From positions 1 through 23,454 of IMG/VR virus record IMGVR_UViG_3300003937_000121: a DNA stretch of 23,454 nucleotides. The stretch is one strand, 5' to 3'. Made by a program: the position numbers and the translations under genes. The stretch is from a virus. Below are positions 1,322 through 20,814 of this stretch, piece after piece (the stretch's first letter is position 1; the number at the start of each line of letters is the position of its first letter). A model generated the notes under the pieces. The model saw only the letters and a list, made by a program, of their open reading frames with translations. It did no database searches and was not told the DNA's origin.

Positions 1322-1340
1322 ACACGAATGGAGAATGAGA
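1322..1340 (+). repeat. Leader repeat C, copy 2
   Basis: This is identical to 937-955 over 19 bases. The last base is the A of the ATG at 1340. The GGAG at 1330-1333 is 6 nt before that ATG, which makes 1340 rather than 1328 the likely start of the next gene. Confidence 0.85.
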
Positions 1341-1942
1341 TGGACGTACACGAGTTTTTGAAGACTAACGCAAATGTAGTTCCGAGCGACTTAGAAATGG
1401 ACAAAGGGACGGATTCTCAGCACTACGTTTCAAAGATAGACGGTTCATATATAGGGTTAGTTGGATTCTCAGAAGAAGACAATGAAAGGCGTTTTAAATT
1501 CATGATAGATCACGGTATATCGCAACTACAGAATGGAACAGGGCACACGGTGGCGAATATGGGGTTCAGCGAGAAAGAGCAGAAGTGGTACGGCTGGTCT
1601 CATAGGGCAATATTCGGGTTTAAGATTGGCTCGGAGGTAAAGCGTGGAGATTGCGCCTACATGCCTGTAGACGAAGAAGATTTTGTTGCAACCATGGTGC
1701 GATTTTGGGCCGACAAACATCACCTGGATATAGAGTATCGAATAGGGGCTAACGTTCTTGGAGAACGCGGTGTTTTCATTGATTGGGTTTATTCAGAGAC
1801 AGTGCCTTATGAAAATCTGCGCGGAACTAACGGGGGATCTTTCCAAATATTTCCCGAGAATTTCGGTAAAGGCGAATGGAAAGCTGAATCCTTAGAAGAT
1901 GCCAAGCAAATGGCCGCTGATTTTGCCGAAAGTGTTAGCTAA
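1340..1942 (+). CDS. Conserved hypothetical phage protein, 200 aa
   Basis: ATG 1340 is chosen because GGAG (1330-1333) serves it; the in-frame ATG at 1328 overlaps that site. The protein is soluble and acidic. Its central part has GFSEKEQKWYGWSHRAIFGF followed by IGSEVKRGDCAYMP, a block I associate with uncharacterised proteins in phages and polyvalent mobile-element proteins, where KWYGWSHRA is highly conserved. The conserved K-W-Y-G-W-S-H-R could bind a ligand or nucleic acid, but no catalytic role is established. This is the largest gene of the early array and ends at a TAA that starts junction repeat B. Confidence 0.78.
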   Translation: MDVHEFLKTNANVVPSDLEMDKGTDSQHYVSKIDGSYIGLVGFSEEDNERRFKFMIDHGISQLQNGTGHTVANMGFSEKEQKWYGWSHRAIFGFKIGSEVKRGDCAYMPVDEEDFVATMVRFWADKHHLDIEYRIGANVLGERGVFIDWVYSETVPYENLRGTNGGSFQIFPENFGKGEWKAESLEDAKQMAADFAESVS

Positions 1943-2166: not shown

Positions 2167-2241
2167 TGTGAAGTGGCTTAGGCCGAGTAACTTTTATGGC
2201 CATATGAGTTCACGTAGGTTCGAGTCCTACCTTCACAGCCA
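2167..2241 (+). tRNA. tRNA-like element with CCA, aberrant anticodon arm
   Basis: A perfect 7-bp acceptor stem (TGTGAAG 2167-2173 with CTTCACA 2231-2237) is followed by G and CCA (2239-2241). The T arm is canonical: GTAGG (2214-2218), loop TTCGAGT (2219-2225), CCTAC (2226-2230). Total length is 75 nt, exactly tRNA size. The rest is abnormal: the D stem GCTT/GAGT has two wobble pairs and a 5-nt loop lacking the GG pair, and instead of a 7-nt anticodon loop there is a near-perfect hairpin (AACTT 2189-2193 with GAGTT 2206-2210, inside it TAT-GGCC-ATA). No anticodon can be named. It is either a degenerate tRNA or a tRNA mimic that keeps the CCA end and T arm. Confidence 0.55.
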
Positions 2242-2271: not shown

Positions 2272-2517
2272 ATGAACGGAAGAAAAGCAAAAATGTTGCG
2301 AAGACTTGCCAGTGTAACTAAAAAGACACAGGAAGACAGAAAGTATTTCGTAGTAGAACATACCAGACGCAGAAGAGAAACTAAAAACTTGCTTGGTGAA
2401 GTTACCAGTTCAATAGTAACAGCCACATTGCAACTCTCTGCTGGGCCGCGTGTAATGTATAAGATGTTAAAGCGCAGCTCTAAAAGTGGTCAACTTAACA
2501 ATCGTATAACAGCGTGA
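2272..2517 (+). CDS. Small basic hypothetical phage protein, 81 aa
   Basis: ATG 2272, with AAAGG about 10 nt upstream. The protein is very basic: MNGRKAKMLRRLASVTKKTQ at the N terminus, TRRRRETKNL in the middle, and GPRVMYKMLKRSSKSG near the C terminus. The N-terminal NGRKAKxLRRL and C-terminal GPRxxYKxLKR blocks match a pattern I associate with small basic proteins in T7-like and T4-like phages; nucleic-acid binding is plausible but unproven. Its TGA (2515-2517) overlaps the GTG (2514-2516) that would start the interrupted gene downstream, so both were probably translated as a coupled pair. Confidence 0.7.
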   Translation: MNGRKAKMLRRLASVTKKTQEDRKYFVVEHTRRRRETKNLLGEVTSSIVTATLQLSAGPRVMYKMLKRSSKSGQLNNRITA

Positions 2518-2699
2518 AGGTTGGACAGAAGTATTACATTATAGCTTCATGGACAAGCTCTGGAATGAGAGTAGAGCGTTGTATTTGAAGAAATGATAGA
2601 GTAGACAACAACAGGTTGGACAAAGGTTTAATATACAAAGATAAGAAAGTCGCTAATGAAGCCTTAGGAAAACAGTCTGCAATGAAACAGGTAGCCTAG
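2514..2699 (+). pseudogene. Small phage protein gene interrupted by in-frame TGA
   Basis: From GTG 2514 the frame reads 24 residues (VKVGQKYYIIASWTSSGMRV then ERCI), meets TGA at 2586-2588, and continues in the same frame for 36 residues (RNDRVDNNRLDKGLIYKDKK, then VANEAL and on) to TAG 2697-2699. The whole fits a common small-phage-protein pattern: GxxYYI, then a tryptophan, ND..D..R...G..(F/Y)K.K..A..AL. The TGA falls where that pattern normally has tryptophan, so a single TGG-to-TGA change, or TGA readthrough, explains it. Other genes here stop at TGA and use TGG for Trp, so wholesale recoding is unlikely. A real nonsense mutation is the simplest reading. Confidence 0.6.
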
Positions 2700-3025
2700 C
2701 ACCTAAAAGCTAGGCAAACAACTGGCAATTATGCCTGACACTATAAAGTCACAAACAAGCGCATGGAGGTGAGTCCATCTCAGAGTAAACTGTAAATCAT
2801 TTAAGATGTTGGTTGGAGTGTCATTCGCCGAGGAGATTAAATGTAAAGGGTCTTTACAGCCAACACCTTACCTATGTAGGACTATTTAGCTACCTGCACT
2901 AAAGAACTATTAGCTATGACTGTCGTGAAAGTGCGGCATTAGTGTCACAGACTAGGGAAATCTAGAAAGTGGCTAATGAATGGAGCAACCGCTCGAAATA
3001 ACTTTTCTTAAGAGAGAGAAATAAT
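2700..3025 (+). other. Structured leader region upstream of the 99-aa gene
   Basis: No convincing gene is present. Visible structures are a 7-bp hairpin GCCTAGC (2694-2700) with GCTAGGC (2709-2715), ATGGA/TCCAT (2763-2778), a 6-bp helix TGTTGG (2807-2812) with CCAACA (2860-2865) enclosing a perfect 7-bp hairpin TGTAAAG/CTTTACA (2842-2858), and GAGC/GCTC near 2983-2994. The stretch TTAGCTA is directly repeated near 2886 and 2910. The region ends in GAGAGAG, the ribosome binding site of the gene at 3026. It is probably a long structured 5' leader or a separate small RNA; it resembles no family I can name. Confidence 0.5.
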
Positions 3026-3325
3026 ATGAATGATAAGATTCAAAGTGTCTTCGGACAATTCGCAGTAGACCTAGGCGAAGGCCCAGTACTTTTCAAAACT
3101 GAAGCTGAAGCACAAGTTGCATTGTCTGAGTACGAAAACGGTGCAGAGCAACGTCAACTCGCTGCTGACTTCTGTGCACATGTTGGTATCGAAGCAAACT
3201 CAAAGAATGCCAAAGGCAAAGCTAACGTAATTACTGCATTCCTATCCTGGGTTGATGCTGGACAGCCTGGCCCTGTTGAAGCGCCTGCTACTGAAGCTGA
3301 AGGTGAACCTGCTAGCGAATTCTAA
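3026..3325 (+). CDS. Conserved hypothetical phage protein, 99 aa
   Basis: ATG 3026 is preceded by AAGAGAGAGAA (3010-3020), a strong purine-rich site. The protein is acidic and soluble: an N-terminal SVFGQFAVDLGEGPVLF beta-like segment, a helix TEAEAQVALSEYENGAEQRQ, then KNAKGKANVITAFLSWV and a low-complexity tail rich in E, A and P. I believe similar proteins occur widely in T7-like phages without known role. It has its own structured leader and its own strong terminator (3365-3399), so it forms a separate transcription unit, and its codons look better optimised than those of its neighbours. High expression is therefore likely. Confidence 0.8.
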   Translation: MNDKIQSVFGQFAVDLGEGPVLFKTEAEAQVALSEYENGAEQRQLAADFCAHVGIEANSKNAKGKANVITAFLSWVDAGQPGPVEAPATEAEGEPASEF

Positions 3326-3364
3326 GTAACACTTAGATACGATAGATAGGGACACAAGCTTGAT

Positions 3365-3399
3365 AGATGACCTAGTATATTACTGGGTCATCTTTTTTT
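3365..3399 (+). terminator. Strong Rho-independent terminator
   Basis: A 13-bp stem (AGATGACCTAGTA 3365-3377 with TACTGGGTCATCT 3381-3393, one T-G pair) with a TAT loop is followed by an uninterrupted T run through 3399. It ends the transcription unit of the 99-aa gene and insulates it from the RNA folds that follow. Confidence 0.92.
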
Positions 3400-3413
3400 A
3401 TGAATATATTTAT

Positions 3414-3585
3414 TGGTTTGTCCTTGTGGAGGACTAGTTTGTACTAGGATTTGTGAGAAAACTCACAATAGCCGCATTGTACGTAAGGTATGTAATTTGC
3501 ACACTCATGGTCTGGCTAAAGGTCAGCTTCCAGAGGGTTACAGCTACTCCTCAGCAAGTACCCAAACTAGCACAAGGACAAACCA
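3414..3585 (+). ncRNA. Putative structured RNA closed by a 15-bp helix (RNA1)
   Basis: TGGTTTGTCCTTGTG (3414-3428) is the exact reverse complement of CACAAGGACAAACCA (3571-3585), 142 nt apart. The helix continues inward after a 5-nt bulge (GAGGA 3429-3433) with CTAGTTTG (3434-3441)/CAAACTAG (3563-3570) and TACT/AGTA. Inside are a perfect 7-bp hairpin with AAAA loop (3451-3468) and a TCTGG/CCAGA stem (3511-3534). The bulge GAGGA is complementary to TCCTC at 3548-3552, which would make a pseudoknot. About 27 bp of long-range pairing cannot be chance. The family is unknown to me; the long rod with a large central opening recalls 6S RNA only in outline. Confidence 0.7.
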
Positions 3586-3599
3586 CTAAATATGTTTAT

Positions 3600-3702
3600 G
3601 CGTAGGGAGCTAGGCCCCAGCCTAGTAGAAGCAGTGTTATACTAAGAATTAATGAATAAGGTACGCACTGTTTATAAAGATCGCAACTTGCCCTACGCTC
3701 CA
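3600..3702 (+). ncRNA. Putative structured RNA with acceptor-like stem and CCA (RNA2)
   Basis: GCGTAGGG (3600-3607) pairs with CCCTACGC (3691-3698), followed by T and CCA (3700-3702), the arrangement of a tRNA acceptor end. Inside are a 6-bp hairpin CTAGGC/GCCTAG with loop CCCA (about 3610-3625) and a stem CAGTG (3632-3636)/CACTG (3666-3670). No T-loop consensus is present (the candidate arm has only 3 bp), and no D arm or anticodon arm is recognisable. At 103 nt it exceeds normal tRNAs without a long variable arm. It is a tRNA-like fold at best. A terminator begins 11 nt downstream. Confidence 0.5.
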
Positions 3703-3712
3703 AATTACACTC

Positions 3713-3754
3713 ATAGCCCTAACCAAATAACTGGTTGGGGCTATTTTGGTTTTA
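3713..3754 (+). terminator. Rho-independent terminator
   Basis: A 13-bp stem (ATAGCCCTAACCA 3713-3725 with TGGTTGGGGCTAT 3732-3744, one T-G pair), 6-nt loop AATAAC, then TTTGGTTTT. It lies between the RNA2 fold and the start of the next gene and would end an RNA1-RNA2 transcript. Confidence 0.9.
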
Positions 3755-3779
3755 ATTAATATAGATGGAGGATAACAAA

Positions 3780-4892
3780 ATGCAACTTCAATACTTCGCA
3801 GTAGATGGAACAAAACTGGAAAACTGTATACGTGTTCCAGATGTATTATATGACATACTAGGTTTTGGAATACCAAAAGGACTAGTAGGATTAGATATGG
3901 ACACTGGATTAGTTAAGGTACATCTAACTAAGACAAAAACAACACACATGAAGTTAGGAAGGTTGTTACACAAAAGTGGAATAGCTGGAGATGTTTGTCG
4001 AGATTATAGCTCTAAACTTAGGGCGATAGTATTAAGTATGAAAGGAGCTAAACTAGAGCTTACAGAGAGCGGAGATGAAGCCTTTGAAATTTATAGAGAT
4101 GGCCCGAACTCATGCATGTCAAATATGGAATGTGTAAAAGCTTATGATTCAGATGATATTGCAGTAGCTTATGTTAGGGTAGAGGGAAGGATACTAGCCA
4201 GAGCTGTAGTGTGCAAAGATGAAGATATAGGACTACGGTATACGTGCATATATGGCAACTCTAACCTAATGAAACCACTATTAGAAGAAGCTGGATATTC
4301 AGAAGGGACACTTAGTGGATGCACACTAAGTTTGTTAAGAGATGATTTTGGCAATACTTTGCTACCCTACCTAGACTGTGGGACAAGAGTATCTGAATAT
4401 GGAGATTACTTAAGTATACACGAAGGTGGAGATTTTGAATCACAAAACACAGCAGGAATATTAGGTGAGGTATGTGATTGTTGTGAAACAATACTATCTC
4501 AGGATGAAACTTATTGGGATGAACATACAGAGCAAAGCTTGTGTAATGAATGCTTTAGTGAAACCAATGTATGGGTAGACGACCGACACTACAACATAAA
4601 TTCTGATGAAGTAGTAGAAGTGTCAGGAAAAGGGTATATACTAAGAGAAGATGCTATTTATGTACATTCTGAGGATGAATGGTTTGCCCAAGAAGATTGT
4701 GTATACTCCGAATACTCTGAAGAAGATTACAGAGCTATAGATGTAGTAACTGCAATAACAGATATATACGAAGAAGAAGGGGAGACATGCTACAGAGGTG
4801 ACTGCACTAATATAGACAATGTATGGGTACACGGAGATGTATTAGCTCTGTATGAAGAGCACATGGATACACAAATGAATATGGATTTATAA
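3780..4892 (+). CDS. Cysteine-rich acidic phage protein with zinc-ribbon-like domain, 370 aa
   Basis: ATG 3780 is chosen over the in-frame ATG 3765 because GGAGG at 3767-3771 serves it. Residues about 100-172 contain SCMSNMECVKAYDSDDIAVA, then GRILARAVV and YTCIYGNSNLMKPLLEEAGY, an SCM / Y / ARA / IYG order I associate with uncharacterised proteins of virulent phages. Residues 232-258 form a likely zinc ribbon (C232, C235, C255, C258), followed by a very acidic tail with repeated EDxVYSEYSEEDY-like segments and C337/C342. It lies just after a terminator, so it probably has its own promoter. Function unknown; a protein-binding or nucleic-acid-mimicking role would suit the acidity but is not shown. 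Confidence 0.75.
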   Translation: MQLQYFAVDGTKLENCIRVPDVLYDILGFGIPKGLVGLDMDTGLVKVHLTKTKTTHMKLGRLLHKSGIAGDVCRDYSSKLRAIVLSMKGAKLELTESGDEAFEIYRDGPNSCMSNMECVKAYDSDDIAVAYVRVEGRILARAVVCKDEDIGLRYTCIYGNSNLMKPLLEEAGYSEGTLSGCTLSLLRDDFGNTLLPYLDCGTRVSEYGDYLSIHEGGDFESQNTAGILGEVCDCCETILSQDETYWDEHTEQSLCNECFSETNVWVDDRHYNINSDEVVEVSGKGYILREDAIYVHSEDEWFAQEDCVYSEYSEEDYRAIDVVTAITDIYEEEGETCYRGDCTNIDNVWVHGDVLALYEEHMDTQMNMDL

Positions 4893-4894
4893 CT

Positions 4895-5110
4895 ATGAAG
4901 ACTATTGATATAAGAGCAAAGAGTGAAAAAGTAGTATCAGTAATATTTGCAGACAATGAAGGAGAATCAGGAAGAGCTGTATCCCTACAAACTTTCTTAC
5001 CAGAACAATGTAACATAATAAGTATAGGAGGCCAAAGCATGCATGTAAAAATGATAGATATAGATAACATGATACTGGCCCTGAGATATGCAAAGGAAAA
5101 CTGGTCATGA
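4895..5110 (+). CDS. Small hypothetical protein, 71 aa
   Basis: ATG 4895 lies 2 nt after the preceding TAA without a clear ribosome binding site, so translation is probably coupled. The product begins MKTIDIRAKSEKVVSVIFAD and is likely a small beta-rich fold (KVVSVIFAD, AVSLQTF, CNIISIGG, HVKMI) with a C-terminal helix. Its stop overlaps the start of the holin-like gene as ATGA (5107-5110). It is not recognised. Confidence 0.62.
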   Translation: MKTIDIRAKSEKVVSVIFADNEGESGRAVSLQTFLPEQCNIISIGGQSMHVKMIDIDNMILALRYAKENWS

Positions 5111-18854: not shown

Positions 18855-20702
18855 ATGATTGAAATTAGTAGCGGCGTTATGTTGCCTATACCACAAGGCA
18901 AAGTTAAAGGAATATCTAGACCAGATAATATGAATGGTAAAAGGTGGCGAGAAGAAAAGCCTAACGCTTGGAGACGAGCCTACCTACACTGCCTATACTC
19001 ACTACCACTACACCTAGACCTACCACTTCACTCAGTAGTACCTAGGATGGCGCGTAAAATGTTAGAGGCAACTGACCCATTTAACGTAGCACTTAGATTT
19101 ATGGGTGAGATGGAATTGGCTGGATACATAACCTTAGAACGTGGTTTTGATGAAAGGATAGTAGTCCCAACTGAGAAATTCTTGAAGCTAGAGTTAGATT
19201 GTGAAAGAGCACCAGACAGTGCTATATCATACCCTAAGCTACGTGGAGAGAGTATACCAAGATCACCCATAAGAGGTGGTGTAGGTGATCAAACAAACAG
19301 AGATGTATCAGCCATAACAGCAGACATGGCTAACGAAGAGTTTGAGATTAATCAGTTTATGCTAGACCTAATTAAAAGATACCCACCAGAATTTGATAAG
19401 GTATCATCAGCGTACATGTATAAACGCACAATGGAATCTGCTGAGAAGATGGGAGATGGTAAGTTTAGATTTCCCTACTTCCTAGATAGTCGTTCCAGAA
19501 TGTATACAGATACAACATGTGGATTTAGTCCACAAGGAGCAGATCACGAGAAGGCAGTACTATTGCCTATATACAGAGAGCCACTTACAGAAGCTGGATA
19601 CTGTGCATTGCTTGAAGCAGCAGCCGGATACTCCGAGCAAGATTGGAGTGCAGAGTACATGGCGAGTATGGCAGAAGACCCTGATAAATATTTTGAAGTT
19701 TGGCAAGAAGCTGATAAGCCTTATTCTTTCATGGCTTGTGCTGATCTTATTCGCCAATATAGGAACGATCCTAATATCCCCCTACCTAGTTTTATCCCAT
19801 TGGATGGACGATGTTCTGGGCTACAACATTGGTCGGCTATAGTAAGGTCTAATGCAATTACCAGACACTTAGGTATGCATGAGGATGAACATGAGTTAGA
19901 TATTTATGAAAAGATAGCAGAGGATTGGAAGGCTACCCTAGAGCCTGATTGGCACTACTTAGCTACTAGAAAGTGCGCTAAGATACCTGTAATGACTTGG
20001 GGATACAATGCTACCATGATGACTTCAATGGATCACATGGCAAAGCTGTTTGGAGCTAAATCATTTTGGTGCGACCTGGAAATGAAGTATATACAGGGCG
20101 ACAACGGGCTAGACAGGGCCACCACGAGTAAATATGGGTGTGATCTGTACAAACAGTTGCAGATAACTTTGGGGCCACTACAGGCCGCTGTGGGCTGGGT
20201 GAGCGATTGTGCTACAGAAATTTCTAAGATAGGAAATGTGGAAATACGCTGGCCTACACCAGATGGATTCACCTGCCTACAACGTAAGGTGAAAGGAGAG
20301 AAGGTAGACCTAGATTGTAAGCTAAGTGATGACAGTAGATTCACCCTAGACATTCTAGATTTTAGTAAAGACCTCCCTAACACTGGGAAGCACCGTTCAG
20401 CCATAGCCCCAAATATTATTCATAGCCTTGATGCTACCCATTTAAGGATGGTTGCTAGGAAGCTTAAAGAACTTGGCCTACCTAAAATATTTATCCATGA
20501 CTCATTTGCTACTCACTGTAATTATAGAGATGTGTTGTATAAAATAATTATAGAAACTTTTGTAGAACTGTATAGTAGAAAGTACTTAACAGAACTTAAA
20601 GAGTATTGGGAAGCTATGTATGGAGTAGAATTAGACAAACCACCAGCCCTTGGAGATTGGGAACCTGAGTCATTATACAACTTAGACAGATTTTTCGTAT
20701 GA
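18855..20702 (+). CDS. Single-subunit DNA-directed RNA polymerase, T7 type, N-terminally reduced, 615 aa
   Basis: It transcribes phage genes from its own promoters. Catalytic features of T7 RNAP are all present: DSRSRMY (D211, T7 D421), motif A PLDGRCSGLQHWSA (D317, T7 D537), O-helix R372, K376 and Y384 (T7 R627, K631, Y639), SAIAPNIIHSLDATHLR and motif C IHDSFATH (H548, D549; T7 D812). T7 RNAP has 883 residues; alignment by D211 shows about 210 fewer residues before the palm, so most of the N-terminal domain that binds upstream promoter DNA is reduced or replaced. A specificity-loop candidate lies at about 465-510. GAGGAGG (18844-18850) serves ATG 18855. Confidence 0.96.
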   Translation: MIEISSGVMLPIPQGKVKGISRPDNMNGKRWREEKPNAWRRAYLHCLYSLPLHLDLPLHSVVPRMARKMLEATDPFNVALRFMGEMELAGYITLERGFDERIVVPTEKFLKLELDCERAPDSAISYPKLRGESIPRSPIRGGVGDQTNRDVSAITADMANEEFEINQFMLDLIKRYPPEFDKVSSAYMYKRTMESAEKMGDGKFRFPYFLDSRSRMYTDTTCGFSPQGADHEKAVLLPIYREPLTEAGYCALLEAAAGYSEQDWSAEYMASMAEDPDKYFEVWQEADKPYSFMACADLIRQYRNDPNIPLPSFIPLDGRCSGLQHWSAIVRSNAITRHLGMHEDEHELDIYEKIAEDWKATLEPDWHYLATRKCAKIPVMTWGYNATMMTSMDHMAKLFGAKSFWCDLEMKYIQGDNGLDRATTSKYGCDLYKQLQITLGPLQAAVGWVSDCATEISKIGNVEIRWPTPDGFTCLQRKVKGEKVDLDCKLSDDSRFTLDILDFSKDLPNTGKHRSAIAPNIIHSLDATHLRMVARKLKELGLPKIFIHDSFATHCNYRDVLYKIIIETFVELYSRKYLTELKEYWEAMYGVELDKPPALGDWEPESLYNLDRFFV

Positions 20703-20814
20703 GTCCATCAAATACACGCTAATGGTAAGAAGCTTTTTAGTCCCGTTACTACCCCGCTTATTCAGGGAGAGGGACTATCTAGGTTTCGATTATTCATACT
20801 AGGAGAAATTCCCA
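20703..20814 (+). promoter_or_regulatory. Intergenic control region before packaging genes
   Basis: This 112-nt gap separates RNAP from the packaging genes. It holds TAAGAAGCTTT (20726-20736), shared with 42-52, and an interrupted hairpin with outer 7-bp stem TAGTCCC (20738-20744)/GGGACTA (20771-20777) and inner CCC/GGG. No T tract follows, so it is not an intrinsic terminator. ATACTAGGAGAA (20797-20808) gives the ribosome binding site for 20815. A phage-RNAP promoter or RNase III processing site is the likely function. Confidence 0.45.

What the first reader, a model, noticed from the sequence alone, without database searches (positions are those of the whole stretch)
3400..3754. Stand-alone non-coding unit of two folded RNAs between two strong terminators
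Between terminators at 3365-3399 and 3713-3754 there is no ORF but two compact folds: RNA1 closed by a perfect 15-bp helix (3414-3428 with 3571-3585) extended by 8 and 4 bp, and RNA2 closed by an 8-bp helix ending in CCA. Long-range perfect pairing over 140 nt is very unlikely by chance. I do not recognise either as a known family. This looks like a dedicated phage small-RNA locus between the early genes and the next operon.
Basis: partly seen in the sequence, partly recalled or inferred. Interest (0 to 1): 0.72.

Follow-up and report, generated by a model that had tools for sequence, protein, structure and literature searches.

The report
Two-RNA cassette in a phage
Between two transcription stops, an uncultured Zobellviridae-like phage carries two strongly folded RNAs, not matching any Rfam family, whose folds recur with different letters at the same spot in several related phages; they are probably real small RNAs, but what they do is not known.

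Summary
Between two intrinsic terminators (3365-3400, 3713-3749) lie 300 nt with no credible gene, and these are the most strongly structured windows on the + strand of the record. RNA1 (3400-3599) is closed by 13+15 bp with one mismatch; no such 15-bp inverted repeat arises in 60 shuffles. RNA2 (3600-3702) is a four-arm cloverleaf ending in CCA. No Rfam family matches.

Relatives support that these are RNAs. RNA1-like elements follow the terminator of the same operon in nine phages (z -4.4 to -9.4; about eight independent) and are absent in seven others. Seven of the nine share one design: long helix, 5-7-nt bulge on the 5' strand only, second helix; all 13 core pairs change on both sides and never break. 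RNA2 recurs in three phages with a 16-nt loop (14/16 invariant) and a 7-nt loop RUCGCAA on stems that covary.

So this is a lineage-specific, gain-and-loss slot for structured RNAs. Best guess: read-through transcript, cut in the long helix by RNase III, yielding two stable RNAs that act in trans, perhaps as decoys (inferred). Main rival: RNA1 is only a cis processing site. No transcript data exist.

The parts
3365..3400 (+). Intrinsic terminator 1, ends the operon of the small gene 3026-3325
   Evidence: a terminator at this place in most relatives
3400..3599 (+). RNA1: long-helix RNA. P1 outer 3400-3412/3587-3599, mismatch 3413.3586, P1 inner 3414-3428/3571-3585
   Evidence: z -7.6; nine phages at the same place
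3429..3433 (+). GAGGA: 5-nt bulge on the 5' strand of RNA1 with no nucleotide opposite; conserved in position and size (5-7 nt) in 7 of 9 elements
3434..3570 (+). RNA1 P2 (3434-3441/3563-3570, CUAGUUUG/CAAACUAG) and the variable interior it closes
   Evidence: forced P2 costs 0.3 kcal/mol; covariation
3600..3702 (+). RNA2: cloverleaf. P1 3600-3607/3691-3698, U 3699, CCA 3700-3702
   Evidence: homologs L004 and L010
3609..3626 (+). RNA2 arm 2 (hairpin GCUAGGC-CCCA-GCCUAGU), variable in relatives
3630..3672 (+). RNA2 arm 3: lower stem 3630-3636/3666-3672, apical stem 3640-3643/3660-3663, 16-nt loop 3644-3659 AAGAAUUAAUGAAUAA (14/16 invariant in three phages)
3677..3689 (+). RNA2 arm 4: 3-bp stem, 7-nt loop 3680-3686 AUCGCAA (RUCGCAA in relatives), one nt before the 3' strand of P1
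3713..3749 (+). Intrinsic terminator 2
   Evidence: also after the RNA in L004, L005, L162, L167, L010

Best explanation
The stretch is a cassette of two structured non-coding RNAs in a variable slot behind the last gene of an early operon. SHOWN: both folds are kept in relatives while their letters change. INFERRED: the early transcript reads through terminator 1 and stops at terminator 2; host RNase III cuts the 28-bp helix of RNA1, and the two compact RNAs persist as stable small RNAs during infection. INFERRED, weakest step: they act in trans, binding a host protein. RNA1 would offer a long A-form helix with a bent 5-7-nt bulge; RNA2 a tRNA-like cloverleaf with a 16-nt single-stranded bait loop. 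A decoy against a host RNA-binding or tRNA-directed defence factor would fit the gain-and-loss pattern.
For: Fold strength z -7.2, top of the record on this strand. RNA1-like elements at the same place in nine phages, z -4.4 to -9.4, against -2.0 to +2.1 in seven relatives without it. 13 core pairs in six sequences: 100% paired, all 13 with changes on both sides, 0/500 shuffles and no slid control near. L169/L235 (71% identical there) keep a 25-bp outer helix with two compensatory changes and no break. RNA2: apical stem UACU/GGUA, AGCU/GGCU, GAGA/UCUC on one nearly invariant loop; P1 with three compensatory changes window vs L004 and no mismatch. RNAs come and go independently of the downstream gene: RNA1+RNA2 in window and L004, RNA1 only in L005 and others, RNA2 only in L010, neither in L008, L011, L013, L174, L175, L176, L233. 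A Thoeris inhibitor gene (Tad6) lies 1.5 kb upstream, so the region also carries counter-defence.
Against: No transcript data. No recognised promoter at the 5' end. The interior of RNA1 runs from 23 to 210 nt and in L165 is a bare hairpin, which is odd for a trans-acting RNA and suits a helix-only role. L004 and L167 lack the bulge-P2 core. RNA2 is known from three phages only, at this one locus. No target was found: the 16-nt loop has no complement of 9 nt or more in the window. The decoy idea rests on position and pattern alone.
Confidence: 0.45

Rival explanations
1. RNA1 is a cis-acting processing and insulating element: a long double-stranded stem at an operon border that host RNase III cuts, setting the 3' end of the early mRNA and the 5' end of the next one, as in T7. 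Only the helix matters, the interior is free to drift. RNA2 would be a separate matter.
For: Always directly behind the terminator of the same operon; P1 is the constant part, interior length 23-210 nt; in L169 and L235 the 3' arm of P1 covers the AGGA ribosome-binding site of the next gene (sequences), so cutting would be needed to translate read-through mRNA.
Against: A conserved 5' bulge with nothing opposite, plus P2, are kept; the whole element is 71% conserved between L169 and L235. One such site near one gene rather than many along the genome; absent in seven relatives; in the window there is already a terminator on each side. Does not explain RNA2.
Confidence: 0.33
2. RNA2 is a tRNA derivative or tRNA-like RNA (decayed tRNA, or a charged or decoy tRNA mimic).
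For: Four-arm cloverleaf, 8-bp acceptor-like stem, 7-nt loop in the T-arm position, encoded U-CCA in the window; tRNA or tRNA-like genes 0.5-1.5 kb upstream in the window, L010 and L167.
Against: Not called by ARAGORN or by the Rfam tRNA model even at E<5; loop is RUCGCAA rather than UUCRANY; 16-nt loop in the anticodon position; L004 and L010 do not encode CCA; arm 2 differs wholly in size.
Confidence: 0.15
3. A DNA-level element (origin, cruciform, recombination or packaging site) rather than an RNA.
For: Inverted repeat at a fixed genome position; the arms could extrude as a cruciform.
Against: G-U pairs occur in the helices, the bulge is on one strand only, terminators frame it, loops are conserved in RNA2. 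Several relatives do without it.
Confidence: 0.05
4. Small proteins are encoded: the AUG in the RNA2 loop opens an ORF of 35 aa in the window.
For: AUG AAU AA in the loop of all three phages.
Against: Products are 35, 25 and 16 aa without likeness, and L010 is out of frame at the conserved UCGCAA; the TTG/GTG ORFs of 58 and 50 aa lie inside helices that change freely between relatives.
Confidence: 0.03

Closest known systems
RNase III processing sites of phage T7 early mRNA (such as R1.1)
   Same: Double-stranded stems at gene borders of an early phage operon (own knowledge; papers that use R1.1 located, not read).
   Different: T7 sites are short irregular hairpins repeated along the genome (own knowledge); RNA1 is one element with 28 bp, a one-sided 5-7-nt bulge and up to 210 nt of folded interior.
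tRNA (RF00005) and tRNA-like RNAs
   Same: RNA2: cloverleaf order of arms, 7-nt loop next to the closing stem, U-CCA end in the window.
   Different: 8-bp closing stem, 16-nt loop, loop RUCGCAA, no Rfam or ARAGORN hit, no CCA in the two homologs.
GOLLD and ROOL RNAs (PMC12286853, abstract seen)
   Same: Structured non-coding RNAs, found in phages, near tRNA genes (own knowledge), function unknown.
   Different: Those are large (hundreds of nt) and ornate; no Rfam match here.
6S RNA
   Same: About 200 nt, 5' and 3' ends joined in one long helix.
   Different: No two-sided central bubble; no Rfam match.

Membership tests
tRNA (RF00005) | Score above the Rfam gathering cut-off / ARAGORN call | tested here: not met
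   only 2167-2241 is called, nothing in 3400-3754
tRNA (RF00005) | T-loop UUCRANY, 7-nt anticodon loop, 7-bp acceptor stem | tested here: not met
   loop AUCGCAA, 16-nt loop, 8-bp stem
T7-type RNase III processing site | Double-stranded stem of about 20 bp at an operon border | tested here: met
   P1 28 bp with one mismatch
T7-type RNase III processing site | Cut by RNase III, giving mRNA ends there | not testable with these tools
   needs RNA ends from infected cells
T7-type RNase III processing site | Several sites along the early and late transcripts | tested here: not met
   the only perfect inverted repeat of 12 bp or more, arms 20 nt or more apart and within 320 nt, in the window; shorter hairpin sites were not looked for
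6S RNA and every other Rfam 15 family | Covariance model match | tested here: not met
   (E<5) and 51 for relatives
Trans-acting phage small RNA | Discrete transcript during infection | not testable with these tools
   no expression data
Trans-acting phage small RNA | Own promoter | tested here: inconclusive
   no sigma-70-like site on the + strand in 3325-3420; the putative phage promoter motif is not near
Trans-acting phage small RNA | Conserved structure and terminator | tested here: met

The most novel reading that the evidence does not exclude
The slot behind this early operon is an exchange site for phage-made RNA decoys: RNA1 and RNA2 are two new RNA families that shield the phage from RNA-binding or tRNA-cutting defence proteins, gained and lost as hosts change.
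Probability: 0.2. Interest if true: 0.85.

Novelty: new variant of a known kind. Interest (0 to 1): 0.52.

Why it matters
Few phage RNAs outside tRNAs are known with comparative proof of structure. Here one slot in a phage lineage related to Zobellviridae holds two RNA types absent from Rfam, one with strong covariation, in an early region that also carries a defence inhibitor. It gives exact molecules to look for, and a natural presence/absence series of phages in which to look for an effect.

Tried and rejected
Nucleotide search of the phage isolate collection: no match, near or distant; the gene upstream has no isolate homolog. A model of RNA2 run over 71 loci found no fourth copy (next best E 0.11). 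A protein search with the gene downstream found nothing in viral contigs. The 16-nt loop as antisense: no complement of 9 nt or more in the window. RNA2 loop as a phage promoter: resembles the putative promoter GCTAATGRTAAG only loosely and the flanks covary, so rejected. The upstream non-coding block of L169/L235 folded as one large RNA: gapped alignment, not convincing. Alignment A9 misplaced L165, so the covariation count uses six of the seven sequences with P2. A planned pair count on the L169/L235 alignment failed on a length error; the two compensatory changes were read by eye.

Full report
WHAT THE WINDOW IS. A 23,454-base IMG/VR virus record. Its DNA polymerase is 48-49% identical to those of Pseudomonas phage PA11 and Salinivibrio phage CW02, both Zobellviridae; it also codes for a single-subunit RNA polymerase (18855-20702). 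No isolate in the collection shares DNA with it (and for 2400-4900).

OBSERVATION. Terminators at 3365-3400 and 3713-3749 are real. The stretch between folds at -111.6 kcal/mol against -75.6 in shuffles, z -7.2, and the four most structured of 292 windows on this strand overlap it or its terminators. The 15-bp perfect inverted repeat occurs in none of 60 shuffles. Outer part: 13 more pairs after one mismatch. RNA2 is as described. Rfam has nothing for it, even at E<5.

RELATIVES. DNA polymerase searches gave phages down to about 44% identity in that protein. The 99-aa gene just upstream (3026-3325) marks the place in most relatives used. L004, a short contig, was placed by the gene downstream. 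Behind the terminator there is a long-helix RNA in the window, L004, L005, L162, L165, L167, L169, L235 and L019 (z -4.4 to -9.4). L169 and L235 are close kin, so nine elements are about eight independent ones. Relatives L008, L011, L013, L174, L175, L176 and L233 lack such an element; the 200 nt that follow there are not structured (z -2.0 to +2.1).

RNA1 DESIGN. Seven of nine elements share P1, then 5-7 unpaired nt on the 5' strand only, then P2 of 5-8 bp: bulges GAGGA, GAAGGC, GGAAGA, GUAGAC (twice), ACGAU, AUGGCCA. Within each interior, chance of such a P2 is 0.002-0.037. In the window the P2 fold costs only 0.3 kcal/mol against the minimum-energy fold. Counting six sequences (inner 8 pairs of P1, first 5 of P2; apical part replaced by a GAAA placeholder and short bulges padded with N to keep the columns in register), all cells pair, all 13 pairs change on both sides, 0/500 shuffles reach this, and slid controls fall to 33-48% paired. 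Caution: the helices were picked because they pair, so the shuffle and slide controls overstate; the z-scores and the fixed location do not share this flaw. L004 and L167 have P1 but not this core.

RNA2. In window, L004 and L010 the same core appears: 16-nt loop AAGAAWWAAUGAAUAA on a stem of quite different letters, then RUCGCAA in a 7-nt loop on a 3-bp stem, then the 3' strand of the closing helix. L010 has RNA2 in the place of RNA1, with a longer closing helix. L010 alone folds weakly by energy (z -1.0), so its membership rests on loops and stems. No other copies were found.

HOW IT MAY WORK. Three facts bear on function. First, the elements come and go, and RNA1 and RNA2 do so separately. 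Second, the downstream gene differs: the 370-aa gene in window, L004 and L005, and other genes in L165, L169 and L235 (sequences). So the RNAs do not serve one downstream gene. Third, in L169 and L235 the 3' arm of P1 covers the ribosome-binding site of the next gene, so there a cis effect is likely. Together these favour stable RNAs acting in trans, cut out by RNase III, at about 0.45, over a cis processing element at about 0.33. Neither transcription nor cutting is shown.

MEMBERSHIP. RNA2 resembles a tRNA in outline but fails the defining tests; RNA1 resembles an RNase III site in its helix but differs in number and in its bulge and interior. Both are best called new, unnamed phage RNA types.

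Noticed in passing
window 1328-1942 (+): 204-aa protein matches Tad6, a type I Thoeris inhibitor (Pfam PF25188, E 2.9e-40).
   Followed up: no
window 2167-2241 (+): tRNA-like gene with a 4-base anticodon call (ggcc) and Rfam tRNA score 34; odd tRNA also in L010 4051-4123, and a tRNA-Met in L167 2379-2453.
   Followed up: partly
window 2518-3025 (and 1943-2271): About 500 nt without a plausible gene just upstream of the 3026 gene; 2709-2775 is 72% identical to L005 4338-4401, with a hairpin around GUGAGUC whose stem changes on both sides. L169/L235, L010, L167 and L162 also have 0.5-1 kb of mostly non-coding DNA there. May be a further RNA.
   Followed up: partly
window 20712-20729; L001 near 3089 and 3145, L003 near 6475, L011 near 20445: Motif like AYACRYGCTAATGRTAAG just behind the RNA polymerase gene in window, L001/L002 (twice) and L003, and also in L011: a candidate promoter of the phage RNA polymerase.
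   Followed up: partly
window 20740-20775; L001, L002, L003: Strongly conserved non-coding block CCGTTACTACCCCGCYTRWTYAGGGAGAGGG between the RNA polymerase and the small terminase genes; role unknown.
   Followed up: no
L010 4600-4680: Another long hairpin RNA-like element (z -5.5) upstream of the 3026-gene homolog.
   Followed up: no
L242 about 660-715 and L246 about 2210-2265 (Clostridia MAGs): Two similar stretches with AAGAAWWAATGAATAA ... ATAACTTT ... GTCGCAAC; they do not fold like RNA2, probably unrelated but alike to each other.
   Followed up: no
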